Source: a virus. Taken from it: a DNA stretch of 63,304 bases. Shown in pieces: positions 38,033 through 63,232 of the stretch. Position 1 is the stretch's first letter; each line of letters starts with the position of its first letter. Where the stretch lies: positions 1-63,304 of the IMG/VR virus record IMGVR_UViG_3300042934_000801, one strand, 5' to 3'. The translations under genes were made by a program, and so were the position numbers. Under the pieces are notes generated by a model, which had not been told where the DNA came from, did no database searches, and saw only the letters and a list, made by a program, of their open reading frames with translations.

Positions 38033-39171
38033 TGGCGTGGATCATCGACCGGCACCGCAAGGACGGCACCCCCTACTGGGCCGTGTGCTGGCGCGAGAGC
38101 GGCCGCAACGGCAAGCAGGAATCCATCACCTGGTACGACCGCGACGACGCCCTGCACTGCAAAGACCTCATCGACAAGCTCGGCCCCGAAAAGGCCCGCG
38201 ACATCATGAAGATCATCACCGAACCCCGGCGCGCGCAGACCGTCGCCGAGTTCCTGACCGCCCACGTCGACCACCTCACCGGCGTCGAACCCGGCACCAC
38301 GAAGCGATACCGCGCCTACATCCGCAACGACCTCGCTGGCATCGGCGACATCCCGCTTCGCGCGCTCACCCGGGAGGACGTCGCACGGTGGGTCAACGCG
38401 ATGAGCCAGACCAGCTCGGCCAAGACCGTGAAGAATAAACGCGACTTTCTGTCTGGCGCGCTCAAGGCCGCAGTGAAGGCCAAGGCCATCCCGGCCAACC
38501 CCGCCGAGGACGTCCGCAACCCGCGCTGGGACCGCCGCGAAATGGTGTTCTTGACCGCCGCAGAGTTCCGGATGCTGCTCGACGAGATCCCCGCCTACTG
38601 GAAGCCCCTGATCGAGTTCCTGGTCGCCTCCGGGGCGCGCTGGTCCGAAGCGACCGCGCTGCGGCCCGCCGACATCGACATCACACATGGCACGGTCCGG
38701 ATCTCGAAGGCGTGGAAGACCGGCAGCGACGACGGCGGATACACCCTCGGTGTCCCGAAGACCCGCAAGAGCGTCCGCACGATCAACGTGCCGGCCAGCG
38801 TGCTGGAGAAGCTCGACCTGACAGGGGAGTGGGTGTTCACCAACTCCGGGCGCGGCCGCGGCCAGAACGCCACCGAGAAGCTCGGCCCCGACCCGAACCC
38901 CGTGCGCATCCACTCGTTCGCACCGAACGTGTGGCGGCCGGCCATCGAGCGCGCCAAGCTCAAGGGGCTGACGAAGTCGCCCCGCATCCACGACCTGCGC
39001 CACACCGCGGCGTCATGGCTGCTGCAGGCCGGGCGGCCGATGCCGTCCGTACAGCAGCACCTCGGGCACGAGTCGATCCAGACCACCGTGGATGTCTATG
39101 GGCACCTGGACCGCTCGAGCGGCAAGGGCAACGCCGACGCGATCGACGCGATGCTCACACCGCTGGACTAG
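38032..39171 (+). CDS. int: Tyrosine integrase
   Basis: The product is 379 aa. Arm-binding and core-binding domains fill residues 1-170 (TVAEFLTAHVDHLTG; SAKTVKNKRDFLSGAL). The catalytic domain shows Arg203 (SGARWSEATAL), His320/Arg323 (HDLRHTAASWLL), His346 (HLGHESIQTT) and Tyr356 (VDVYGHL). The ATG at 38032 shares a base with the ATPase stop; the frame is open further back, but only inside the ATPase gene. attP lies 1.9 kb upstream, on the other side of the ATPase gene. Confidence 0.96.
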   Translation: MAWIIDRHRKDGTPYWAVCWRESGRNGKQESITWYDRDDALHCKDLIDKLGPEKARDIMKIITEPRRAQTVAEFLTAHVDHLTGVEPGTTKRYRAYIRNDLAGIGDIPLRALTREDVARWVNAMSQTSSAKTVKNKRDFLSGALKAAVKAKAIPANPAEDVRNPRWDRREMVFLTAAEFRMLLDEIPAYWKPLIEFLVASGARWSEATALRPADIDITHGTVRISKAWKTGSDDGGYTLGVPKTRKSVRTINVPASVLEKLDLTGEWVFTNSGRGRGQNATEKLGPDPNPVRIHSFAPNVWRPAIERAKLKGLTKSPRIHDLRHTAASWLLQAGRPMPSVQQHLGHESIQTTVDVYGHLDRSSGKGNADAIDAMLTPLD

Positions 39172-39191: not shown

Positions 39192-39704
39192 TCACGGCAA
39201 AAGGACCGCCATCACGCCGGGGTCGATCCTCCAGGTCAGTGTGCCGCCATCGTTGAACACATGCACGGGGATGTCGTGTGGCGGCCCGCCGGCGGCTGTC
39301 ATCGTCGCCATTCCCTCGAACGAGGTGTCCCCGGTTCGCACGAGCGACACGTGGTGCACACGAACATTGAATTGCGGCTGCCCTGGGTCGGCGTCGAGTG
39401 TGTTCTGAATGTTGTTCAGGACTGTGCCGGCGAGCGCGTCGATGCCGTTGGGACTGGAGTTTGCAGGCGGTATGGCGGGGGCGGCCGGCGGACTATAGGT
39501 CGGTACCCACGGCACATTGCCGCCACTAAAGACCTTGGGGCCCTGATAGATCGGGTCGAAGTAACCGCCGGTACTTCCGTCGACGCACTTCTGATAGCCG
39601 GGACCGGTCTCGTAGCAGTACGGTGCAGCGGCAGCGACACCCGCCGACCCCGCGAAACATGTGGCTGTCGCGGCCAGTCCAAGCACAGCCAATCGGAAGG
39701 TCAT
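39192..39704 (-). CDS. Secreted protein, last gene of the lysogeny operon
   Basis: The product is 170 aa. A clear signal peptide (MTFRLAVLGLAATATC...AGVAAAAP) is followed by a Cys-containing segment and a proline-rich stretch, then FNVRVHHVSLVRTG and HDIPVHVFNDGGTLTWRIDPG. The ATG at 39704 overlaps the preceding gene's stop (ATGA). An exported protein made by the prophage could alter the cell surface. Convergent with the integrase. Confidence 0.68.
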   Translation of the reverse strand: MTFRLAVLGLAATATCFAGSAGVAAAAPYCYETGPGYQKCVDGSTGGYFDPIYQGPKVFSGGNVPWVPTYSPPAAPAIPPANSSPNGIDALAGTVLNNIQNTLDADPGQPQFNVRVHHVSLVRTGDTSFEGMATMTAAGGPPHDIPVHVFNDGGTLTWRIDPGVMAVLLP

Positions 39705-39934
39705 AGGCGGAGATCGTATTGCCGACTGCTCACCCTGCGCAGCCGGTTCACCGTGGACGCTGCGTAGGCGAGCGCCCTCTCGGTCGCCAGAAGGCGATTC
39801 AGCAGCTGGTAGTACCGAGTCGGCGTCAGGCCCATCGCGCCGATTGCGGACTCTTTGCCACCAGCAGTGGCCCACCACTGCTGCTCAAGGTCAAGGATCG
39901 CGCGCTCCTGATCGGTCAGGGAATCCATAGCCAT
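39701..39934 (-). CDS. DUF3263 family protein
   Basis: The product is 77 aa from the ATG at 39934 with GGAGG 5 bases upstream. DQERAILDLEQQWW, GLTPTRYYQLLNRLL and the basic C-terminus are diagnostic of DUF3263, small helical actinobacterial and actinophage proteins of unknown function, probably DNA-binding. Confidence 0.8.
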   Translation of the reverse strand: MAMDSLTDQERAILDLEQQWWATAGGKESAIGAMGLTPTRYYQLLNRLLATERALAYAASTVNRLRRVSSRQYDLRL

Positions 39935-40359
39935 TGGTCCTCCAGGTGATATTCGAGCTGAGACACCTCGAGCGGGTCGAGAGTGGACATGCGGGTCTGC
40001 AGGGTGGGTTCGTCGACCCAGAGGTGCTCGGCGAGCTCGCATGGGTCTCGCGTCCAGCGCAGCCCGTTGGTGAGCGCAGGGAGCGTGATGAGGCGGCGTG
40101 CGCTGATCTCCTCGACGAGGCGCTCCTCGCGCTCCGCGGCAGCCGGTTCTTCCGGCACTGGGCCGCGCTCGCGGTGCACAAGCTCGTGCGTGAGGGTGCA
40201 GCGCCGCTCGGCCTGGGTCAGTCCGCGCGCCAACCAGATCCGCCGGCCAACCTGCAGCCCCATGACACGGTCCGGGAGCCGGTACCGGCAGGACACATCG
40301 ACGTCATCGTGATGATCGCGAAGCAGCCTCCACGGGTGGAAGAGCGATTCGATGCTCAT
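39916..40359 (-). CDS. ImmA/IrrE-type zinc metallopeptidase
   Basis: The product is 147 aa. HELVH (His58-Glu59-x-x-His62) in CTLTHELVHRERG is the zinc site; R-Y-R-L-P and RIWLARGLTQAERR are typical of phage ImmA-like proteins. In other mobile elements ImmA cleaves the repressor to trigger excision; here it sits in the same leftward operon as the repressor and may act on it or on the HTH antitoxin. Overlaps the DUF3263 gene by 19 bases. Confidence 0.78.
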   Translation of the reverse strand: MSIESLFHPWRLLRDHHDDVDVSCRYRLPDRVMGLQVGRRIWLARGLTQAERRCTLTHELVHRERGPVPEEPAAAEREERLVEEISARRLITLPALTNGLRWTRDPCELAEHLWVDEPTLQTRMSTLDPLEVSQLEYHLEDQWLWIP

Positions 40360-40409
40360 GCCGACGGACGGTAGGGGACACCTCCGACAAGATCAGTGCC
40401 GCAACGGAA

Positions 40410-40976
40410 TTACGTTGTTGTAACTCCGTCGTCCAAAGACTCATCTTCGGGGTCGGGTCCCCAACCGATCGCTGACTCATTCAGATACATTCGACCGTTG
40501 ACGATGTATAACGGAAATTCTGGCGGAGGCTGCTTCAGCGTGAAACATATGCGCTCTAGTCCGGCCTCTACGTATGGCATCAAGAACGGCAGCACGTACT
40601 CAGTAGCGAAGCTCTGCAGATCTTCTTCGTTGAAAAGTTCGGTGTCGTCGAAGTTAACTACTGCGCCCTCTTCATAGATGGCAATATGCGATTCCAGCCG
40701 TGCGTGCGCTCTTAACCTAATCCCAACCATGGCTTTTGAGGAACGGCCGAGGGAGGGTTGGAGCCGTATGGTGCCTACTGGCGCATTGTCAATACTGTCG
40801 TCTTCGCGCTCATCTTTCACATGGCGCGCAAGGAAGTAGCTAGCCGCGTGGGACATCGACGTTGCCGCTTCCCAAATCTCGTGTGGCTCAGCAGAAGTCC
40901 GCTGCTCAGCAGTGCTTGAGCGTTCTTCAGTTTCTTCCGGCACGGTGCCTTCCTGGCTTGCTGTCGACATGCACAC
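40410..40976 (-). CDS. SecB-like chaperone of a toxin-antitoxin-chaperone module
   Basis: The product is 188 aa (186 from the second ATG at 40970). After an acidic N-terminus, VGIRLRAHARLESHIAIYEE, a TELFNEEDLQSFATEYVLP helix and LMPYVEAGLERICFTL followed by PPPEFPLYIV reproduce the order of SecB-fold proteins and resemble the small chaperone Rv1957 of M. tuberculosis. Its 50-base overlap with the HigA-like gene supports one operon. In TAC systems this chaperone folds and protects the unstable antitoxin. GC is low (about 48% in places). Assignment from pattern memory, no search. Confidence 0.7.
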   Translation of the reverse strand: MCMSTASQEGTVPEETEERSSTAEQRTSAEPHEIWEAATSMSHAASYFLARHVKDEREDDSIDNAPVGTIRLQPSLGRSSKAMVGIRLRAHARLESHIAIYEEGAVVNFDDTELFNEEDLQSFATEYVLPFLMPYVEAGLERICFTLKQPPPEFPLYIVNGRMYLNESAIGWGPDPEDESLDDGVTTT

Positions 40977-41445
40977 TCACGTGGGCGCGATTGTCTCGAA
41001 CTACTTCCTGGATTTGCTTTTTCCAGTCGGTGAAGACGGGAATTGGGCCGGTCATCTCCGACGGGCCCACCAACTCATGCAGCGTTGACGAGTCGACGTA
41101 TTCCCACTTCTGAAAAAGCTCATTTGGACTCGCTGTCTTCAATGTCCGGTGTATCGCGCGGTCGAGATAGACCCAGTGTTCATACCGGGCGCCGATGGAT
41201 GCCGCATAACGGCGGATCGTTGATAGGCGGGGATCCGCGCCCGGGCGCTCGAATTGACTCACGGCTGTCTTATGTCGACCCCAGGCGCGGCCAAGATCTT
41301 CCTGCGTCAGTCCGGCCGCGCGGCGTAAATCAGCGAGTTGGATCAGGAACTGTTCGTCGGCATGGGCCAAATCTGCAGCTAGTCGGGCCTCAACCGAATC
41401 TTCGCCAAGACCGAACTCTTCGGCTAACTCTTCCCAGATGCCCAT
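40927..41445 (-). CDS. HigA-like antitoxin with HTH domain and C-terminal extension
   Basis: The product is 172 aa from the ATG at 41445. Residues about 35-95 are an XRE helix-turn-helix: LADLRRAAGLTQEDLG, TAVSQFERPGADPRLSTIRRYAASIGAR. This pattern is very close to HigA of the M. tuberculosis TAC operon. The extra C-terminal tail (about 100-172) is where chaperone-addiction sequences lie in TAC antitoxins. A palindrome overlaps its start region. The ATG lies 6 bases after TATTCT, so the message may be leaderless. The frame is open to 41493, but earlier starts run through the palindrome. Confidence 0.75.
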   Translation of the reverse strand: MGIWEELAEEFGLGEDSVEARLAADLAHADEQFLIQLADLRRAAGLTQEDLGRAWGRHKTAVSQFERPGADPRLSTIRRYAASIGARYEHWVYLDRAIHRTLKTASPNELFQKWEYVDSSTLHELVGPSEMTGPIPVFTDWKKQIQEVVRDNRAHVSVHVDSKPGRHRAGRN

Positions 41446-41446
41446 A

Positions 41447-41466
41447 AGTAGAGAATAACCTCTACT
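41447..41466. promoter_or_regulatory. Operator-like palindrome at the antitoxin start
   Basis: AGTAGAGaataacCTCTACT, a perfect 7-bp inverted repeat with a 6-base centre, overlaps the end of the toxin gene and the leftward -10 element TATTCT (41452-41457 on the minus strand). A HigA-type protein binding here could control its own promoter. Confidence 0.65.
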
Positions 41467-42037
41467 GGTTGCCGGGGGTGAGACTGTTGCCAAGCTGACG
41501 CCCCGCGCGCCAAGCTGAGAACTCCGATCTAGCCTGCTCGATGTGCTGCCGTTGAATTGCTTGCCAGTCGTCGGAAACGAGAGAAGACGGCTTACGACCG
41601 AAAACCAAGAACAGGATCAACGCCGGTTCGACCAGTGGCGCAGCGAAGTACATTCTGAACTGCCAACCGCGGATGTCCGTGTCACCGTGCCCGTTCACGG
41701 TGACCGGATGGCGAAGCTCTCCAAGCTGACTGTCGTTGCCCTCTAGCGGGAAACACCACTCAGAGTCGCGGTCGCCTTGCAGGCCCGAACCGCGAACGCA
41801 TCCGTTGACTGCGCGCTTTCGCAGGTCGAAGACATCTCGAAACAAGGTGGCAACCAATCTGCGACGGATTCCAATCTGCTTGTCTGTCAACAGTTCTCCG
41901 TCGTCGTCTTCCTCGAACTCCCTGCTAATGGCAGCGACAACTTCCCGTGCCTGTTGCTCATACAGCTGGGTTTCTTCCCATTCAGTTCGACCACCGAACT
42001 GTTGACGCCACGGGTCATAAGTGCCGATTTCACTCAC
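41462..42037 (-). CDS. Putative toxin of the TAC module (RelE/HigB-like C-terminus)
   Basis: The product is 191 aa from GTG 42037. The N-terminal half is charged and helical. The C-terminal part (RGWQFRMYFAAP, then ALILFLVFGRKPSSL and a helix QRQHIEQARSEF) has the strand-strand-helix layout of RelE/HigB toxins, but I cannot place it in a named family. Order toxin, HTH antitoxin, SecB-like chaperone matches Rv1955-Rv1956-Rv1957. Low GC. The start overlaps the lipoprotein stop by 8 bases. Confidence 0.58.
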   Translation of the reverse strand: MSEIGTYDPWRQQFGGRTEWEETQLYEQQAREVVAAISREFEEDDDGELLTDKQIGIRRRLVATLFRDVFDLRKRAVNGCVRGSGLQGDRDSEWCFPLEGNDSQLGELRHPVTVNGHGDTDIRGWQFRMYFAAPLVEPALILFLVFGRKPSSLVSDDWQAIQRQHIEQARSEFSAWRAGRQLGNSLTPGNQ

Positions 42038-42497
42038 TCGGGCCACCGCCGCTCCAATCGCAATCGCCCGACAGTTCGATGAAGCCTTGGACGTTTTCGA
42101 TAGGGAACTGCAGGACGGTCTCGCCGATCGGGGTGCTCCACAGCCCGACGACGTCCTGCTTATTCGCTCCTGCCCATTGCCACGCGTTGCACGCTGCAAC
42201 GTGTGGTGTCTGGTCGGCCGGGCCGACGTAAGTGCCGACCCATACCCCGGGCTGGAGGCCAGGTAGATCGGACGCGGGGTTGTTCACGGCGAATGTCTGC
42301 GAGGCGGCACGGGTCGTGGTCGCGGAGATGACCAACGTCCCAGCGGCGGACACCGGCGGATTAGAACGCGACGGCTGCGCCGGCGCAGCCGGACTCGTCA
42401 CGGTAACCGTTTCGGCGGGGGCCGCGGAGTCGGTCTGCGCGCCGCATCCGACGGTGACGCCGCACAGCGCCAGCGCGGTGATTCCTGTGCGGATCAC
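42030..42497 (-). CDS. Lipoprotein co-transcribed with the repressor
   Basis: The product is 155 aa. GTG 42497 gives VIRTGITALALCGVTVGCG, a lipoprotein signal with cysteine after TVG. A T/S/P-rich linker follows, then a compact domain with two further cysteines (HVAACNAWQW...SGDCDW). It starts in a GTGA overlap with the repressor stop, so it is made in lysogens and placed outside the membrane, where it could block adsorption or DNA entry of related phages. Confidence 0.72.
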   Translation of the reverse strand: MIRTGITALALCGVTVGCGAQTDSAAPAETVTVTSPAAPAQPSRSNPPVSAAGTLVISATTTRAASQTFAVNNPASDLPGLQPGVWVGTYVGPADQTPHVAACNAWQWAGANKQDVVGLWSTPIGETVLQFPIENVQGFIELSGDCDWSGGGPSE

Positions 42498-43981
42498 TCG
42501 TCGCTGCCCGGGTCTTGGGATTCCTCGCCGCCAGCTTCGCCCTGCTCGGACCGCCCTGGCGTGTAGTCGCGCGGTGTGATGCGTGCGGCGGCCGCTAACG
42601 CGCCGGAGTATCGAGTTCCTGTAGTGGCGAGCGTCAGAGACTGCAGATGTGAATCGAGCTCGGCGATCAACCGAGCGGCGTCCGCAGATACCAGCACTTC
42701 TTCGGTGTCCGCAGATACCTGCACATTTTGAAGCCTTTCCCGGGCTCGTCCAAGCGCCGCAGTCAAGGACGACAGCTGGGCAAGTTGCCCGGCCGGTGTA
42801 TCCGCGGCCGGAGTGAGAGATCGGAGGGTTTCTTCCAGCTCCTCCGACACGCCGAGCGACGGATCGAGCTCGTCCATCATCTGAAACAGTTCGCGCAGTT
42901 TCTGCGGTATCCACGGGGGCACTAGACCGTCTGGAAACAGTGCAATTATCGGCTGGACATCACCGCTCCGGCTCGTGGCGTCCCCCCGCTCTAATTGGCC
43001 TGGTGTGCTTCCCTCGGGGGCGGTGCGAGCGGCGATGAGGTGACGTTGGACGGAAGGCTCGTGAGTCGCAGACAGGCCGGACTCGATCCATGCGGCCTTG
43101 TCAAGCCGTAGTCGACGCACCAAGTCGCGTAGTAAATCCCCATGCAGCACTGCAGGTTTGCGGAGCACCACGGTCGGAGCCTTCGCGGCAATGTCTTCCA
43201 GCAATGGGATGAACGTCTCGCTGGTCGTTGCGAAGAAGTCGAATGCCTTGATGGCGGCGTCGATCTGTTGCGGTGTGGCGTGCAGGTCAACCATCTGCAT
43301 GGCGTCCAACGTGTCGACGGTTGCGGCTTCGTAGCGTTCGACGGCGAGATAGAACACAGCGACTGTGGTGTCGACGTCGTCGTCGGGTGTCAGCGATGAC
43401 AGCGTCGTCACAGCGTCGATCAGAGCCATGGTTGTCGCATGCTGCGCTTCGATGACCGCATGGTCGATCGTTGCCGCTTCGAGTTTCGGCAGTACCGCAG
43501 CGTCGAGCTCGAAAACCACGTTCGTCTGCGGGATGGCGAAGTCGATGGACGCGGCAGGCTTGGCATTTCCCAGGTCGGCATCTTTCAAAAGGCCTGCGAC
43601 GGCTTTCTCCGCAACGCTGCCGTGTTCTAACGCATTCTGAACCATCCGCTCTTTTCCTAGCTCGGAGCGACTACGCACCCCTTTCATGCGTCGCTGGACT
43701 TCGGCGAGTAGTTCGTCGTCGGTGAGGGCGTCTGGCCCGCGGTGAATCTCGATGGCTTCCGCTGCTTCAGTGCCGGTGAGGTAGCCAGCGGCGACCAACG
43801 CCTCGACAGGCGGTCTGCCGTAGGCGCGGCTGAATACGACGACCGATTGAGCGCTGGGCTCGTTGTGTCCTTTGGACCACCGGGAGATGACTGTGGTGCC
43901 GATGCCTGAGACGTCGGCAATCTTCTTCTGTTCATCCGTCCCGGCAATCCGAGTCACGTAGTTCCACCACTCATTGGCCAC
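42494..43981 (-). CDS. rep: Immunity repressor (long form)
   Basis: The product is 495 aa from GTG 43981 (ANEWWNYVTRIAGTDEQKK). Residues about 8-65 form the helix-turn-helix (KIADVSGIGTTVISRWSKG) followed by AYGRPPVEALVAAGYL and DDELLAEVQRRM, the usual mycobacteriophage repressor sequence. The remaining 400 residues are helical with no recognised domain, far longer than typical repressors. The frame is open to 44158, but that would cross the operators. It lies divergent from Cro and is first in an eight-gene leftward operon. Confidence 0.82.
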   Translation of the reverse strand: MANEWWNYVTRIAGTDEQKKIADVSGIGTTVISRWSKGHNEPSAQSVVVFSRAYGRPPVEALVAAGYLTGTEAAEAIEIHRGPDALTDDELLAEVQRRMKGVRSRSELGKERMVQNALEHGSVAEKAVAGLLKDADLGNAKPAASIDFAIPQTNVVFELDAAVLPKLEAATIDHAVIEAQHATTMALIDAVTTLSSLTPDDDVDTTVAVFYLAVERYEAATVDTLDAMQMVDLHATPQQIDAAIKAFDFFATTSETFIPLLEDIAAKAPTVVLRKPAVLHGDLLRDLVRRLRLDKAAWIESGLSATHEPSVQRHLIAARTAPEGSTPGQLERGDATSRSGDVQPIIALFPDGLVPPWIPQKLRELFQMMDELDPSLGVSEELEETLRSLTPAADTPAGQLAQLSSLTAALGRARERLQNVQVSADTEEVLVSADAARLIAELDSHLQSLTLATTGTRYSGALAAAARITPRDYTPGRSEQGEAGGEESQDPGSDE

Positions 43982-43993
43982 ACAACCAGCGTA

Positions 43994-44007
43994 TTGCGCC
44001 CACGCAA
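43994..44007. promoter_or_regulatory. Operator 1 (TTGCG-n4-CGCAA)
   Basis: TTGCGcccaCGCAA, a perfect 5-bp inverted repeat 13 bases from the repressor start. Same half-sites and spacing as the other two sites in this divergent gap. Confidence 0.7.
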
Positions 44008-44027
44008 GATTCTGGGCTGCCAAAACG

Positions 44028-44047
44028 CACTTGCGTCCACGCAAGTG
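44028..44047. promoter_or_regulatory. Operator 2 (strongest palindrome)
   Basis: CACTTGCGtccaCGCAAGTG, a perfect 8-bp inverted repeat with a 4-base centre. Longest of three related sites, so probably the highest-affinity repressor or Cro site. Confidence 0.8.
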
Positions 44048-44128
44048 CCCAGCAGGTGGACTTACACGGTTGTCTTTCAGCACTGCATAGGCGCAATCAG
44101 CCACCGTTACCGAACCGTGACCTTTCTT

Positions 44129-44146
44129 GATTGCGCGTATGCAATC
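44129..44146. promoter_or_regulatory. Operator 3, overlapping the probable early promoter
   Basis: GATTGCgcgtatGCAATC contains TTGCG-n4-TGCAA. It covers a possible -35 (TTGCGC, 44131-44136) spaced 17 bases from TACATT (44154-44159) in front of Cro, so repressor bound here would shut off the rightward early promoter. Confidence 0.7.
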
Positions 44147-44210
44147 CCTCCCGTACATTCAATCGCATGGCCGCAAGATTGCAGGCCAGGGGCTTAGAAG
44201 GAGGTGAAGG

Positions 44211-57432: not shown

Positions 57433-57758
57433 GCGCGGCAGAGGTGCTGGCCCATCACCAGTCCGAATCGCTCGGATGCTGCCTGCCATGCGGGCATCAG
57501 TCGCACAGTCGCGCTGAACACGCCGTGCACCAGCTCGACGCGCTCAAGTCCGCCGGATACGGCGTGATCGAACTGCCGACCGTCGCGCACAAGGGGCCGC
57601 ACGACACCGACGCGATGTTCTTCCGTCAGGTGGCCGACCGTATGGCAGACCCGACCAAGTCGGTGAACTTCCTCAGTGGCACCAATGTGCGTGCCGCAGT
57701 CCGCCAGCTGCTGTACCGCGCTGCCGACGCCACCGAGCAGGTGGGCGATGAGTCATGA
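57429..57758 (+). CDS. Early hypothetical protein with Cys cluster
   Basis: The product is 109 aa. CCLPCGHQSHSRAEH near the N-terminus could bind metal. Helical C-terminus. Overlaps both neighbours by four bases. Function unknown. Confidence 0.6.
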   Translation: MSAAEVLAHHQSESLGCCLPCGHQSHSRAEHAVHQLDALKSAGYGVIELPTVAHKGPHDTDAMFFRQVADRMADPTKSVNFLSGTNVRAAVRQLLYRAADATEQVGDES

Positions 57759-58036
57759 CCGTGCACACGTTCGCCTTGAACCCAGGCTCGGTCACCCAAG
57801 GCGTCTGCAGCTGCGGCAACTGGGACGGGCACACCGACAATCACCACTTCCACGCACGAACGAAGAACGGGCACAACGTGAAAGAGCCGGTCGATTACTT
57901 GGCCGAAGCGAAATCTGCTGTAGCGGTCGACAACAAACTCGCCACCACCTACGCGCTCATTGCCATCGCCGAAGCGATGCACGGTCTGCAACTCGCAACG
58001 GTTGCAGAGCTGCGGCGCCGATTTGAGTCGCGGTGA
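57755..58036 (+). CDS. Early hypothetical protein with zinc-like motif
   Basis: The product is 93 aa. VCSCGNWDGHTDNHHFHAR is Cys/His-rich; the C-terminal helix (TTYALIAIAEAMHGLQLATVA) may dimerise. A GTGA near its stop hints that another plus-strand gene once followed where the antisense pentapeptide gene now lies. Confidence 0.62.
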   Translation: MTVHTFALNPGSVTQGVCSCGNWDGHTDNHHFHARTKNGHNVKEPVDYLAEAKSAVAVDNKLATTYALIAIAEAMHGLQLATVAELRRRFESR

Positions 58037-58041
58037 CCGTG

Positions 58042-59568
58042 TCACTTCGTTTCCGATTGCACTCGCGGCGGCCAGTCTGGCGGCTGCGGAAACACGGACT
58101 CTGGAATCAGCGCGATATCTTGGTCCCAGTCGAACGTCACGTGCAGACTACTCCAAATCCTTGGCTCCGTGAAAAAGGCAGTGCCGTTGAGAAATTCGGC
58201 TTGTCGAAACGACGTAAGGCCGTTGGAGAAGTAACCAGTACTGAAATCGGCCGTTCCTCGGAACAGTGCCTTGCGGAAATCTGTTCGACCGGTGAATTGC
58301 GCTTCTCTGAAGAAGACGTGACCATCGAAACTTGTTCCGGCAAAGGTTGTTTCCCCGCCAAAGCGAGCGTTCAGGAAGATTCCAACGCCTGTGAATTTCG
58401 CCTTGTCGAATACCGACTTGAAGTCGAACTGTGCTCTGCGAAAGTCGACAATCTTCTTGAAGCGAGTGCTGCTGAAGTCAGTGTGGCCGTTGAACAATGT
58501 GTCGGTGAAAAGCGCGCATCCGGCGAATCTGGCGTTTTCGAAAAGAGCTCCGCGCCCGAAAGTGGCACCAGAAAAGTCAATATCGCCAGCGAAGACGGCA
58601 TCCTCAAAATCGGCAGCTCCCAAAAACGCTGCCTTCCGAAAGCTCGCGTCCTCGAAATGGACTCCGCTAAAATTGAAATTGCATGTACTCCAGCTGTTTT
58701 CCGCAGACTCGCGAAGGTGAGCGGCAATAACGTTCACCACAGTTGTGCGAACTACGCGGTCGTTCTGCCGGACCTTGCGGTGGGTCGTTACCTCCTGGCT
58801 GGACTGCGCTTCGTCAGCGTCGAGGTGGCCTTGTTTTGTCACGACTTCAGTGACGTCACTGGCCCCGGTCTTTGGAGAGTAAGGCAGGCGAAGATACCCA
58901 CACAGGACATCAATGCACTGTTGGCGGCGTCCAGTCGTCGTCGCTTCATCTGCGGCCGTGGTCATTGCGTAGACTCCGGCGATACGGACCGCTGGATCAG
59001 CGTCGCCAAGCTGGGCTGCGGCGGCCCCAAATCTCTCGATGAATCTACCCTGCTCAACATCCCGTTGGCGTCGGTAGGCGACCACCAAGGCCACAGCAGC
59101 GCCAACACCTGCTACTGCGGTCAACGCTGTCTTAAGCACATCAATCCTGGTCGGAGGCGTGCCGCCCGCGGGATGAAGAGCGTGTTCGATGGTCGAGTAG
59201 CTGACCCACACGAGCAACAAGCCGACGCTCACAGCGGCCAATACCGTCGGCATCAGAGACCAGGAGTGGATGCGTCGGCCCAATGGTGCGAGCCCGAGCG
59301 TGGACCTAATAAAAAGCAGGCACACCCCGAAAGCGATCGTGCCTCCCGCAGCGGCAAGAGACAATCGGCCGACATTGCTGTCGACCGGGGTCATCCAGTC
59401 CCAAATCTCGCGCCCTGTTTCGACCATGTCGGTATTGCCCGAGACGAGAAACACGGCAAATCCGGCGAGAAGGCCAGGGATCAGCGCGACCAAGAAAATC
59501 CATCCCGGCAGCGTTGTAGGTGCTCGCAGAACCTTGACGTCCAGTCTTTCCGACCTACCTCTTTGCAC
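58042..59568 (-). CDS. Membrane-anchored pentapeptide-repeat protein (low-GC cargo)
   Basis: The product is about 508 aa from GTG 59568; the frame is open to 59733 and TTG 59580 is possible. Four membrane helices lie in about the first 180 residues. A conserved-looking linker follows (RFGAAAAQLGDADPAVRIAGVYA...QCIDVLCGYLRLPY), then about 30 A(D/N)LXX-type pentapeptides (FSGATFGRGALFENARF). This layout is common in actinobacterial chromosomes. GC is near 47% in places, and it is antisense to its operon. A surface-protection or defence role is possible; not shown. Confidence 0.8.
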   Translation of the reverse strand: MQRGRSERLDVKVLRAPTTLPGWIFLVALIPGLLAGFAVFLVSGNTDMVETGREIWDWMTPVDSNVGRLSLAAAGGTIAFGVCLLFIRSTLGLAPLGRRIHSWSLMPTVLAAVSVGLLLVWVSYSTIEHALHPAGGTPPTRIDVLKTALTAVAGVGAAVALVVAYRRQRDVEQGRFIERFGAAAAQLGDADPAVRIAGVYAMTTAADEATTTGRRQQCIDVLCGYLRLPYSPKTGASDVTEVVTKQGHLDADEAQSSQEVTTHRKVRQNDRVVRTTVVNVIAAHLRESAENSWSTCNFNFSGVHFEDASFRKAAFLGAADFEDAVFAGDIDFSGATFGRGALFENARFAGCALFTDTLFNGHTDFSSTRFKKIVDFRRAQFDFKSVFDKAKFTGVGIFLNARFGGETTFAGTSFDGHVFFREAQFTGRTDFRKALFRGTADFSTGYFSNGLTSFRQAEFLNGTAFFTEPRIWSSLHVTFDWDQDIALIPESVFPQPPDWPPRVQSETK

Positions 59569-59653
59569 TGCGACATTCAAGCAGTTCGGATGAGTCCACG
59601 TTTGGTTTGGCAGCAAGAGAAGGCGAGGAACGGTCGTGTTTGAGCGATCGACA

Positions 59654-60808
59654 ATGGACGCCCGCCAGGACCGGCAGTCCCACCGCTGCATAGCGGGCGA
59701 CAGCTGCCGCGCCCGGCGCGACGAACTCGGCACGCTTCAACCGGCCTTGACCGAGAAACCCCTCACGCTGTGCCAGGGCTGCCATGGGCATCATCGCGAA
59801 GCCATCCGCCGTCTACCCCGCGACTACACCATGCTCCAGATCACGCTGGGGGAGCGCAGTACCGGAACCAGTGAGCCCATCCGCTCAACGCCATCACCGG
59901 TAGTCCTGCTCAACACCACGAGCGACAGGCTCATGTCCGCCATCGCCGAATGGTCAGACCGCGCTGCCTGCGCGGTCGCAGCCATGATCAACACCCCAAT
60001 TCCAACCACCCGTCGCCAACCGCCCAAGCGCACCGAGAAACGCAACGGCAAGTCAATCCGGTCCGAACCAGCGCGAGGATCAGTCGCCGAAATCACCTGG
60101 GCAGCAACAGGTCCGACACCCGGCGCTGAACTAGGCATCGCGCTACGATTCGTCGAACAACACATCGACGATCTCGCCGCCGCCCCGGAATGGGATTACT
60201 ACGTCTGGGCCCAACCGCACCGCTGCACTGTGCACGAGAACCTCATCAACGTCGCCACCGAGCACGTCGCAGCAGCAGACGAGACCACCCTGATGGAGGC
60301 TCGCGCCGGGCTAGAACGAGCACGCCTGGCCGCGGCGCTTTGCGACGACTGCAACGGCTGGTCCGACCATGGCCAAGCACGCGAACTCGCCTACCTCAAC
60401 GGATTCGAGATCCTCGAACAGCTCACCCGACTGCACCACCTCACCCGGAAACACCTCGGCCACACCATACTCCGACACCACTCCACACTGCCCTGCGACG
60501 CCTGCGGAGCCGCCACCCTCGGCCGCGCCGACGGCACCTGGGTCATCGACTGCACCACCTGTGGCGCCAAATACACCGAGAACGAACTCGGCTTCCTCAT
60601 CCGCATGAAAATCGACGAGATCCACACCAAGGAGGAGAACGACATGCTCAGATGGCTGCTCGCCGAGGCACAATGGCGGCTGGATCAGATCCAGGCCAAG
60701 GTCGACGTACTCCGCGACGACGACACCATTCAACTCGCCGGCGCGGGACCGATCATCATCGAAGCCATCGACGACGTCCTTGGTGGATCCGGCCGCCCCA
60801 CGTCATGA
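59654..60808 (+). CDS. Zinc-finger protein of the late-early region
   Basis: The product is 384 aa from ATG 59654 (GTG 59636 is in frame). N-terminal zinc motif CIAGDSCRARR...CQGCHGHH, a helical middle, then CDDCNGW and a C-terminal zinc ribbon CDACGAATLGR...CTTCGAKY. Similar multi-zinc proteins end early operons in other mycobacteriophages; DNA or RNA binding is likely. It is the first plus gene after the pentapeptide cargo. Confidence 0.65.
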   Translation: MDARQDRQSHRCIAGDSCRARRDELGTLQPALTEKPLTLCQGCHGHHREAIRRLPRDYTMLQITLGERSTGTSEPIRSTPSPVVLLNTTSDRLMSAIAEWSDRAACAVAAMINTPIPTTRRQPPKRTEKRNGKSIRSEPARGSVAEITWAATGPTPGAELGIALRFVEQHIDDLAAAPEWDYYVWAQPHRCTVHENLINVATEHVAAADETTLMEARAGLERARLAAALCDDCNGWSDHGQARELAYLNGFEILEQLTRLHHLTRKHLGHTILRHHSTLPCDACGAATLGRADGTWVIDCTTCGAKYTENELGFLIRMKIDEIHTKEENDMLRWLLAEAQWRLDQIQAKVDVLRDDDTIQLAGAGPIIIEAIDDVLGGSGRPTS

Positions 60809-61216: not shown

Positions 61217-61861
61217 CTAGAGGATCCGTACTTCCGGTGGACGACCCGTTCGATTTTCGCTGTCGACGGTCACCACATTTCCCATGGTCCTCACCCGATG
61301 TCGCGACCCATCTGAGTTCCGGAGCGTTATGTCGTCCGCATCCAAACGCACACGATGGATGGGCCCGCTCTCATTTCTGATCGTGATGTACCTACCGATC
61401 GTTCCCGCAACGGAGCGCCGATCGCCAACGCCGAGCTTAGTAATCGTGATGCGGTTGACTTGACCGCCGGTAGTGGTCACAGTCGCGAACGCGGGTTCAG
61501 CGGATGCGAGCCGTTCACCAGCCTCGTCATGCTTGCCCCGCCTGTAGGATCCGCGCGTCTCCCAGCGGATGCCACCCGCTCTGACGACGATGCCGGCCGC
61601 GAACTTGAACGACTTCACGAACTTGGTCCCAGGAAAGCGATCATTGGCAGCGCAAAACGCGGCTAGGTCGTCCTCCCATTCCGGGCGGTGGTAATCGCGC
61701 ATCTCTGGCCGAAGCATCCGGAGCGCGACCTCCACCATGAATGCCGGCAAAGCGTCCGCACGGGCCCGAAGCTCGTCGCTAACGAGCTTGCCGGCGAAAG
61801 CGGTAAGTCCCCACACAATTACGGCGCCGACGATGGCCAGCGCGGCGAGAATTGCCGTCAT
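61217..61861 (-). CDS. Membrane protein paired with PadR regulator
   Basis: The product is 214 aa. One N-terminal hydrophobic helix (ILAALAIVGAVIVWGLTAFA) then ALRMLRPEMRDYHRPEWEDDLAAF, a motif found in actinobacterial membrane proteins often encoded next to PadR regulators, and a basic beta-rich tail. ATGA overlap with the PadR gene. Likely host-derived cargo. Confidence 0.62.
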   Translation of the reverse strand: MTAILAALAIVGAVIVWGLTAFAGKLVSDELRARADALPAFMVEVALRMLRPEMRDYHRPEWEDDLAAFCAANDRFPGTKFVKSFKFAAGIVVRAGGIRWETRGSYRRGKHDEAGERLASAEPAFATVTTTGGQVNRITITKLGVGDRRSVAGTIGRYITIRNESGPIHRVRLDADDITLRNSDGSRHRVRTMGNVVTVDSENRTGRPPEVRIL

Positions 61862-62220
61862 GGCGCAACCCCCAGAACTTGTGTGATCCTGCGGGCCCAC
61901 GCAGGGGCAGGTCGCACGCGTGCAGGTGCTGGCGACAACTCGGTGCTGGCCTCTGCGAGGAGGCGCCGCGCAACCGGAACTGCACTGCCACGCAGCACGT
62001 ACGTGACTCGTGGGGGTCCGCCGGAGTCAGGATTCGCACCAGGATCGACCTTGCGCTGCAACCAATCGGCCTTCGTAAGCCTGGCTAGGATCTGGTAGGT
62101 CTTTGCCGAGCTGAAGCCCGTCTCCTGCATGAGCTTGTAGCCGTATTGGGTGTATTGCGGATCGTCGAGGAACGCTTTCAGGATCCGCAGTACTGCCATG
62201 GTGGGGCGGATGTCTTCCAT
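61858..62220 (-). CDS. PadR-family transcriptional regulator
   Basis: The product is 120 aa. TMAVLRILKAFLDDPQYTQYG, KLMQETGFSSAKTYQILARL and PPRVTYVLR form the PadR winged helix. ATG 62220 is 7 bases after TATCAT, so it is probably leaderless. It likely represses its own operon with the membrane protein. Antisense to the phage operons. Confidence 0.82.
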   Translation of the reverse strand: MEDIRPTMAVLRILKAFLDDPQYTQYGYKLMQETGFSSAKTYQILARLTKADWLQRKVDPGANPDSGGPPRVTYVLRGSAVPVARRLLAEASTELSPAPARVRPAPAWARRITQVLGVAP

Positions 62221-62293
62221 GGCGTCGATGATACCAACTTTCTTACATAGTTGCCGCGGCCGCGCCGAACCCTGATGTGCTGGCGCGCCCGGG

Positions 62294-62309
62294 TACGCAT
62301 GCGTATGAT
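62294..62309. promoter_or_regulatory. Palindrome and possible rightward -10 before the glycosyltransferase cassette
   Basis: TACGCATGCGTA (62294-62305) is a perfect 12-bp palindrome whose right end merges into TATGAT (62304-62309), a good -10 element for rightward transcription. No clear -35 is visible. It may be an operator-promoter for the next block. Confidence 0.45.
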
Positions 62310-62320
62310 CGACCCCAAGC

Positions 62321-62355
62321 ACCGCTGTGTCCCGATTCGGGAACGGCGGTTTTTT
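62321..62355 (+). terminator. Rho-independent terminator before the glycosyltransferase cassette
   Basis: ACCGCTGT-G-TCCCG, loop ATT, CGGGAACGGCGGT, then TTTTT: 13 pairs with one bulged G, followed by a T run. It would end rightward transcripts coming from the early region, or attenuate a transcript that starts just upstream. The gap 62221-62392 holds no gene. Confidence 0.85.
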
Positions 62356-62392
62356 CATGTGCCCTGTCGAGTGTTCCGAAAGCGGGGCAGCT

Positions 62393-63232
62393 ATGAATCC
62401 CACCATCATGTTCGTTTTCGCCGGCCGCAAGGCCAACATGGAACTCCAACTGCCCTACCTGCACCGCATCCTCGCCGAACACCCACACGCCGAACTGCAC
62501 ATCTGGGACCTGTCCCGCACGTTCGAAGACCACGTGTTCATCGGCCAGATCAAGGGCGAACGGATCACCGTGCACCGCCACCTCTACAACCACGGACGCA
62601 AGCCCTGGCAGCACTTCAACGACGTCTGGCGCCACTACGGCAACGACCGCAGCTACCGCGACCACCTGTTCGTCAAGATCGACGACGACGTCGTGTTCCT
62701 CGAAACCGAACAGTTCGCCGCCTACCTCGCCGCCATCGAGGCCAACAACGCCGCCATCGTCTCGGCCAAGGTCATCAACAACGGGGCGTGCACAGCCACC
62801 GAACCCGACCTCTGGTTCGGCCTCGAACAACTCGGCATCCCACTGCTCGACGTCCACAAGTCGAGCGAGTACGCAGACATGTGCCACCGCTGGTTCTTCG
62901 ACAACTGGCGCACCACACTCGGCGGCCCGCCAGCCCTGTCACCCACACAGGACTGGCTGTCCATCAACGTCATCGGATTCGACTGGCGCACCTGCTACGA
63001 CCTCGCCCGCCGCCTAGAACAGCCCTCACCCGAGCAGATCGCCGGCCGAACCTTCCGGGCCCGCAGCGTCATCGGCGACGAAGGCGCAGCCAACATGCTG
63101 CCCCGCGTCATCTACGAAGGGTTCGTCGCAGCGCACCTCACGTTCGGACCGCAGGAGACCGCAATGACCGACGGCCAGCTCACCGAGTACCGCAAGAACT
63201 ACGCCGACATCGCCCGGGAATACCTGCGATGA
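62393..63232 (+). CDS. Glycosyltransferase 1 (DXD-type), first gene of a three-gene cassette
   Basis: The product is 279 aa and probably transfers a sugar from a nucleotide donor, most likely onto virion proteins. A KIDDDVVFL motif near the middle is a typical metal-binding DXD motif after a Rossmann-like N-terminus (MNPTIMFVFAGRK). The ATG at 62393 was preferred over an in-frame ATG at 62327 because the latter lies inside a terminator hairpin. The gene ends with an ATGA overlap into the second glycosyltransferase, across the contig break. Glycosylated capsids and tails are known in mycobacteriophages, but the acceptor cannot be read from sequence. Confidence 0.78.
   Translation: MNPTIMFVFAGRKANMELQLPYLHRILAEHPHAELHIWDLSRTFEDHVFIGQIKGERITVHRHLYNHGRKPWQHFNDVWRHYGNDRSYRDHLFVKIDDDVVFLETEQFAAYLAAIEANNAAIVSAKVINNGACTATEPDLWFGLEQLGIPLLDVHKSSEYADMCHRWFFDNWRTTLGGPPALSPTQDWLSINVIGFDWRTCYDLARRLEQPSPEQIAGRTFRARSVIGDEGAANMLPRVIYEGFVAAHLTFGPQETAMTDGQLTEYRKNYADIAREYLR

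What the first reader, a model, noticed from the sequence alone, without database searches (positions are those of the whole stretch)
58042..59568. Low-GC membrane pentapeptide-repeat protein as antisense cargo
Four membrane helices and a long pentapeptide solenoid are unusual in phages, and the composition is far from the phage's own. The plus-strand neighbour again ends with a GTGA that suggests an interrupted operon. It may be a membrane defence or exclusion factor taken from a host.
Basis: partly seen in the sequence, partly recalled or inferred. Interest (0 to 1): 0.6.

Follow-up and report, generated by a model that had tools for sequence, protein, structure and literature searches.

The report
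Prophage membrane pentapeptide-repeat cargo gene
A temperate mycobacterial phage carries, backwards between two of its own genes, one rare gene for a membrane protein with a repeat-built rod inside the cell; it is probably a passenger gene used while the phage lies dormant, perhaps to keep rival phages out, but that use is unproven.

Summary
On the minus strand, 58042-59568, lies an intact 508-codon ORF with four hydrophobic segments, a conserved juxtamembrane helical module and a pentapeptide beta-solenoid of about 184 residues (PF13576, E 7e-24). GC is 57% against 65% for the rest. The phage is temperate (integrase, repressor) and related to Sparkyvirus; Sparky and Farewell have no gene at this junction, so it is an accessory insertion. 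Relatives: one hit in 50,697 phage records (M. abscessus prophage prophiT49-1 gp39, 42% identical, also antisense), 13 IMG/VR contigs, 7 of 396 Mycobacterium genomes, but 92 of 148 Nocardia genomes. In related MabL prophages the slot holding this gene carries other opposite-strand cargo, including a BrnT toxin-antitoxin pair. Family-invariant residues are kept, so the gene is probably functional. Defence is plausible by position only: no PADLOC hit, no defence-gene neighbourhood, no obligate partner, no recognisable promoter, and one Nocardia clade sits at a fixed chromosomal place, suggesting ordinary physiology. Capture from a sampled host is not supported; the gene branches deeply among mycobacterial and prophage copies. 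Best reading: single-gene lysogeny cargo, most likely a membrane exclusion or defence factor (about 0.4).

The parts
58042..59568 (-). Membrane pentapeptide-repeat protein, 508 aa from GTG59568 (frame open to 59733)
59071..59523 (-). N-terminal membrane region (residues 16-166), four hydrophobic segments; the last two (about 100-128, 142-166) shared with the family
   Evidence: A1 and A2 alignments
58681..59079 (-). Conserved juxtamembrane helical module (residues 164-296: AYRRQRD..RFIERFGAAAAQLGD..AVRIAGVYAM..QQCIDVLCGYLRLPY..RQND..VR..SWS)
58132..58683 (-). Pentapeptide-repeat beta-solenoid (residues 296-479, about 9 turns of 20 residues)
58033..58036 (+). GTGA end of the upstream plus-strand gene; at the corresponding Sparky and Farewell junction GTGA joins the next gene directly
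57755..58036 (+). Left neighbour, 93-aa phage gene (phrog_1545); its stop lies 5 bases from the stop of the cargo gene
59636..60808 (+). Right neighbour, DNA-binding protein family (phrog_1568), homologue of Sparky gp85, 41% identical; divergent from the cargo gene
38551..39111 (+). Tyrosine integrase domain, showing the phage is temperate
42494..44158 (-). Repressor-type regulator of the immunity region

Best explanation
The gene is a one-gene accessory module ('moron') of a temperate, Sparky-related mycobacterial phage, inserted backwards between two early plus-strand genes. Shown: the ORF, its domains, its absence from the same junction in relatives, and carriage of relatives by other prophages. 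Inferred: it is transcribed from its own start in the lysogen; the protein sits in the inner membrane with its helical module and solenoid in the cytosol. Inferred and least certain: the solenoid binds a component of an incoming or replicating phage (or a host complex it uses), and the helical module passes the state to the membrane segments, so that the membrane protein excludes or aborts the second infection. It would do in one polypeptide what two-gene prophage systems such as Sbash gp30/gp31 are proposed to do with a cytosolic sensor and a 4-pass membrane protein.
For: Temperate phage: integrase and repressor. Gene absent at this junction in Sparky and Farewell and in the relative L007, so accessory. 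Relative in prophiT49-1, antisense beside a serine recombinase; related prophages carry a BrnT toxin-antitoxin pair or other opposite-strand genes in that slot. Opposite-strand toxin-antitoxin genes inside early lytic genes of M. abscessus prophages are strongly transcribed in lysogens (PMC8092301). In 7 of 12 phage contigs inspected the gene borders a run of opposite-strand genes. Topology N-in/C-in with a cytosolic solenoid. Core under strong purifying selection in relatives, while the solenoid changes 3-4 times faster at amino-acid sites and varies in length from 81 to 317 residues, which fits a fixed transducer with a changeable recognition surface. Four-pass membrane proteins are known in Sbash and Butters prophage defence (PMC6426596, PMC7542560).
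Against: No match to any PADLOC defence family. Genes around scattered-locus relatives are mostly ordinary; few match defence models, and the main recurrent neighbour is a serine recombinase. A 30-sequence Nocardia clade lies largely in one conserved chromosomal neighbourhood, as expected of a housekeeping role. Solenoid dN/dS stays below 1 and its relative speed is raised in that fixed clade too, so no arms-race signature. No sigma-70-like promoter found upstream. No expression data.
Confidence: 0.4

Rival explanations
1. Lysogenic conversion of ordinary cell physiology: a membrane-anchored scaffold for envelope or septum proteins, comparable to cyanobacterial HglK, with no role against phages.
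For: HglK has four N-terminal membrane segments and a C-terminal pentapeptide solenoid and affects septa and envelope glycolipids (PMC8145042). 92 of 148 Nocardia genomes carry relatives, and one clade sits at a fixed chromosomal place. Two mycobacterial genomes carry a similar protein beside hemE-like and RNase D-like genes (names by eye).
Against: Phage, plasmid and recombinase-linked copies at scattered places suggest a mobile, conditional benefit. The slot in MabL prophages also takes a toxin-antitoxin pair.
Confidence: 0.32
2. Passenger with little or no effect on lysogen or phage, recently acquired and not yet lost.
For: Rare in phages, foreign composition, no promoter recognised.
Against: The reading frame is intact over 508 codons and the residues conserved across the family are kept (A2). 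Separate phage lineages carry diverged copies.
Confidence: 0.18
3. DNA-mimic pentapeptide protein that shields DNA gyrase or blocks restriction enzymes, like MfpA or Qnr, tethered to the membrane.
For: Same repeat class: the family profile matches solved pentapeptide proteins weakly, and Pentapeptide_3 matches.
Against: Solenoid net charge is 0 over 184 residues, not the strongly acidic surface of a DNA mimic. It is membrane-tethered with a conserved helical module that MfpA and Qnr lack (own knowledge of those proteins).
Confidence: 0.05
4. The insert acts mainly as antisense DNA, lowering expression of the flanking early genes in the lysogen by opposing transcription.
For: Stops of the two convergent genes are 5 bases apart with no terminator between, and the downstream early gene now starts 67 bp from the divergent start.
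Against: The coding sequence is conserved in its family-invariant residues, which antisense action would not require.
Confidence: 0.05

Closest known systems
Mycobacterium abscessus prophage prophiT49-1 gp39 (cluster MabL, OQ417967)
   Same: Same family (42% identity over 73%), low GC (55% against about 63%), antisense single gene in a temperate mycobacterial phage
   Different: Only two membrane segments, a shorter solenoid, beside a serine recombinase; annotated 'hypothetical protein'
HglK of Nostoc/Anabaena (membrane pentapeptide-repeat protein)
   Same: Four predicted N-terminal membrane segments followed by a C-terminal pentapeptide solenoid (PMC8145042)
   Different: Leu-centred AXLXX repeats, 36 of them; cyanobacterial heterocyst role; sequence homology of the helical module not tested here
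Sbash gp30/gp31 and Butters gp30/gp31 prophage defence
   Same: Prophage-borne membrane component with four membrane passes, expressed in lysogens (PMC6426596, PMC7542560)
   Different: Two genes with a DUF4747-type cytosolic partner; the present gene has no partner and no such domain
MfpA / Qnr gyrase-protecting pentapeptide proteins
   Same: Pentapeptide beta-solenoid
   Different: Soluble acidic DNA mimics without membrane segments; here the solenoid is uncharged overall, Phe-centred and membrane-anchored

Membership tests
[quoted passage not shown]
   PF13576 with four stretches, E 6.7e-24; about 184 residues of repeats
Pentapeptide-repeat protein superfamily | Right-handed quadrilateral beta-helix | tested here: inconclusive
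   AlphaFold2 shows regular short strands over residues about 300-480 with pLDDT above 90; handedness not inspected; Foldseek gave no PDB match below E 0.001
Actinobacterial membrane pentapeptide family (aligned as A1/A2) | Membrane segment, YRRQ..RF..A..QLG..AVR.AGVYAM..QQCIDVLC.Y..P module, then solenoid | tested here: met
   Invariant and nearly invariant columns of the 68-sequence alignment; core grouped with mycobacterial copies
HglK-type proteins | Four N-terminal membrane segments plus C-terminal pentapeptide repeats | tested here: met
   Hydropathy and repeats; this is architecture only, homology not tested
HglK-type proteins | Effect on septa or envelope glycolipids | not testable with these tools
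   Needs experiment
RexAB-like prophage exclusion (Sbash, Butters) | Two-gene operon with a DUF4747-type cytosolic sensor | tested here: not met
   Single gene, no consistent partner in relatives, no such Pfam domain
Known anti-phage defence families (PADLOC) | Match to a PADLOC model | tested here: not met
   No family at E 0.1
MfpA/Qnr DNA mimics | Strongly acidic solenoid surface | tested here: not met
   Net charge 0 over 184 residues; the acidic surface of MfpA/Qnr is from own knowledge
Prophage moron / lysogeny cargo | Absent from relatives at the same junction | tested here: met
   Sparky and Farewell; L007
Prophage moron / lysogeny cargo | Own promoter and expression in the lysogen | tested here: inconclusive
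   No sigma-70-like promoter found, but mycobacterial promoters are poorly covered by that scan; no RNA data

The most novel reading that the evidence does not exclude
A one-protein anti-phage system of actinobacterial prophages, with a membrane channel or anchor, a conserved HEAT-like transducer and an exchangeable pentapeptide solenoid as the sensor, forming a previously unrecognised defence family also resident in Nocardia chromosomes.
Probability: 0.2. Interest if true: 0.75.

Novelty: new member of a known kind. Interest (0 to 1): 0.42.

Why it matters
Membrane-anchored pentapeptide proteins of this family are common in Nocardia, yet I found no known function for them. Their capture by several temperate phages, in one case in a slot that in related prophages holds a toxin-antitoxin pair, gives a small and directly testable system: one gene, laboratory hosts, plaque assays. 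If it excludes phages it would be a new single-protein defence class and relevant to M. abscessus strains that resist phage therapy. If not, it still offers a route to the function of a neglected family.

Tried and rejected
Structure search of the AlphaFold2 model against PDB and viral models: no match below E 0.001. Sequence search of PDB: nothing with the protein alone, only pentapeptide solenoids and unrelated-looking designs with the family profile. Insertion-sequence hypothesis: no terminal inverted repeats or convincing target duplication, only 5-6 bp shared between the borders. Partner-gene hypothesis (toxin-antitoxin or Rex-like operon): no consistent neighbour. Ser/Thr kinase as partner: adjacent in L090 only, 2-3 kb away in five other Nocardia loci, so not pursued. 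Defence-island hypothesis: 141 neighbour proteins gave few scattered PADLOC matches; no matched control set was run. Positive selection on the solenoid: dN/dS below 1 (crude pairwise counts). Recent host capture: the core branches deeply, best identity 59% to a Mycobacterium sequence. GTGA as proof of interruption: found at the end of 15% of plus-strand genes, so only supporting. Orthology of the left neighbour with Sparky gp84: the two proteins look unrelated by eye (not tested by alignment), so the empty site rests on gp85 and gene order. Literature: no paper found linking such proteins to phage exclusion.

Full report
WHAT IS THERE. The minus-strand frame 58042-59733 is open. Pfam finds only Pentapeptide_3 (E 6.7e-24, four stretches); PADLOC, PHROGs and NCBIfam find nothing. 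Hydropathy shows four segments, with basic residues at the N-terminus, between segments two and three, and directly after the fourth (AYRRQRD), so both ends should lie in the cytosol. An AlphaFold2 model on 68 relatives has mean pLDDT 82.6: residues 1-100 are poorly modelled, the last two membrane helices are better, the fourth runs into a long helix (141-187), followed by shorter helices, two strands, a helix (270-285) and a regular solenoid to about 480. Weak Foldseek matches include HEAT/armadillo-like helices and are not significant.

COMPOSITION. The insert is 57.0% GC against 65.2% for the rest; third codon positions are 0.63 against 0.74-0.85 in neighbouring phage genes. Part of the low GC is due to the Phe-rich repeats, but the third positions show that not all of it is. 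The immunity region near 40.3-41.9 kb is equally low. The prophiT49-1 and one Mycobacterium copy are also low (55%), while a Nocardia chromosomal copy (L014) matches its surroundings.

THE PHAGE AND THE EMPTY SITE. The record is a 63,304-bp virus contig with a tyrosine integrase and a repressor, so it is temperate. Head and tail genes resemble those of M. abscessus prophages and Sparky/Farewell. In Sparky and Farewell the run DnaQ, RepA-like initiator, small genes, then gp85 (phrog_1568) has nothing between the gene before gp85 and gp85 itself, which overlap by GTGA. The window's right neighbour is the gp85 homologue (41% identity). The left neighbour is not obviously homologous to Sparky gp84, so the empty site is positional rather than base-exact. 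A more distant relative, L007, has the same gp85-type start (GTGTTTGAGCGATCGAC) directly after another small gene. The left neighbour's GTGA end fits an interrupted operon, but 9 of 62 plus-strand genes end that way. No terminal inverted repeats or convincing target duplication were found.

RELATIVES. Among 50,697 phage records one hit was found: prophiT49-1 gp39, antisense beside a serine recombinase. IMG/VR gave 13 contigs. Plasmids of Streptomyces, Rhodococcus and Nocardia carry relatives. In genomes: 339 relatives in the GTDB collection, the best 80 mainly Nocardia; 92 of 148 Nocardia genomes, 7 of 396 Mycobacterium, 4 of 296 sampled across the phylum, seed genome included. In a tree of the core module the window groups with mycobacterial and prophiT49-1 sequences (SH-aLRT 92) on long branches. 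Thirty Nocardia sequences form one clade, many of them in one conserved neighbourhood; 36 others form a clade at scattered loci, including a prophage and recombinase-linked loci. This was a quick tree without bootstrap.

THE CARGO SLOT. In four related MabL prophages the slot beside the serine recombinase holds four different opposite-strand inserts: the pentapeptide gene (T49-1), a 612-bp gene (GD43-6), a BrnT toxin-antitoxin set (T48-1) and a 255-bp gene (T46-2). PMC8092301 reports that toxin-antitoxin genes in M. abscessus prophages often lie within early lytic genes on the opposite strand, and that in several lysogens the pair is strongly transcribed, in contrast to the flanking phage genes. 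In 7 of 12 phage contigs inspected the pentapeptide gene borders a run of opposite-strand genes; gene calls there are crude. In the window, L101 and L127 it lies beside a phrog_1568/1467-type gene, the L127 match being weak.

CONSTRAINT. In relatives the core module has a dN/dS of roughly 0.02-0.2, while the solenoid has 3-4 times the dN and differs in length between some close pairs, for example L022/L028 with 98% core identity, 68% solenoid identity and an 89-residue length difference. The solenoid ratio stays below 1 and its relative speed is also raised in the fixed Nocardia clade, so this indicates a looser, changeable surface, not proven positive selection.

FUNCTION. The best-supported reading is a lysogeny cargo gene for a membrane-anchored cytosolic solenoid. 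Anti-phage exclusion is the single most likely benefit given its slot mates and published prophage systems, at about 0.4. It is opposed by the absence of PADLOC matches, of defence-gene neighbourhoods (no control set) and of a partner, and by the fixed Nocardia clade. A physiological, HglK-like scaffold role is close behind at about 0.32. DNA-mimic action is unlikely because the solenoid carries no net charge. I found no paper linking such proteins to phage exclusion in the library searched.

VERDICT. Observation confirmed; interpretation partly supported. A real and rare accessory gene, a new member of a known family in a known type of phage slot, with an open and testable function.

Noticed in passing
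window 61217-62439 (-): A second antisense cassette in the same phage: a 227-aa protein with an N-terminal membrane segment and a weak PadR-like regulator, between an HTH gene and a glycosyltransferase. Absent at that place in Sparky, Farewell and L007; no relative of the 227-aa protein in the phage collection.
   Followed up: partly
window 39192-42914 (-): Low-GC minus-strand genes between integrase and repressor, including a weak IrrE/ImmA-like peptidase match (39916-40359) and an HTH protein (40927-41493).
   Followed up: partly
L095 2779-3108, L096 12463-12825, window 61858-62439: PadR-like regulators of one sequence cluster occur near pentapeptide genes in three phage contigs; may be chance.
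   Followed up: no
L002, L107, L108, L114: In MabL prophages the slot beside the serine recombinase is a hotspot of different opposite-strand cargo; the 612-bp and 255-bp inserts have no Pfam match.
   Followed up: partly
L117 8636-10141 and L118 17669-19174: Two mycobacterial genomes carry a chromosomal relative with additional N-terminal membrane segments, as in the window protein, beside a hemE-like gene.
   Followed up: partly
L090 4490-9506: A Ser/Thr kinase gene directly abuts the pentapeptide gene on the same strand; related kinases lie 2-3 kb away in other Nocardia loci.
   Followed up: no
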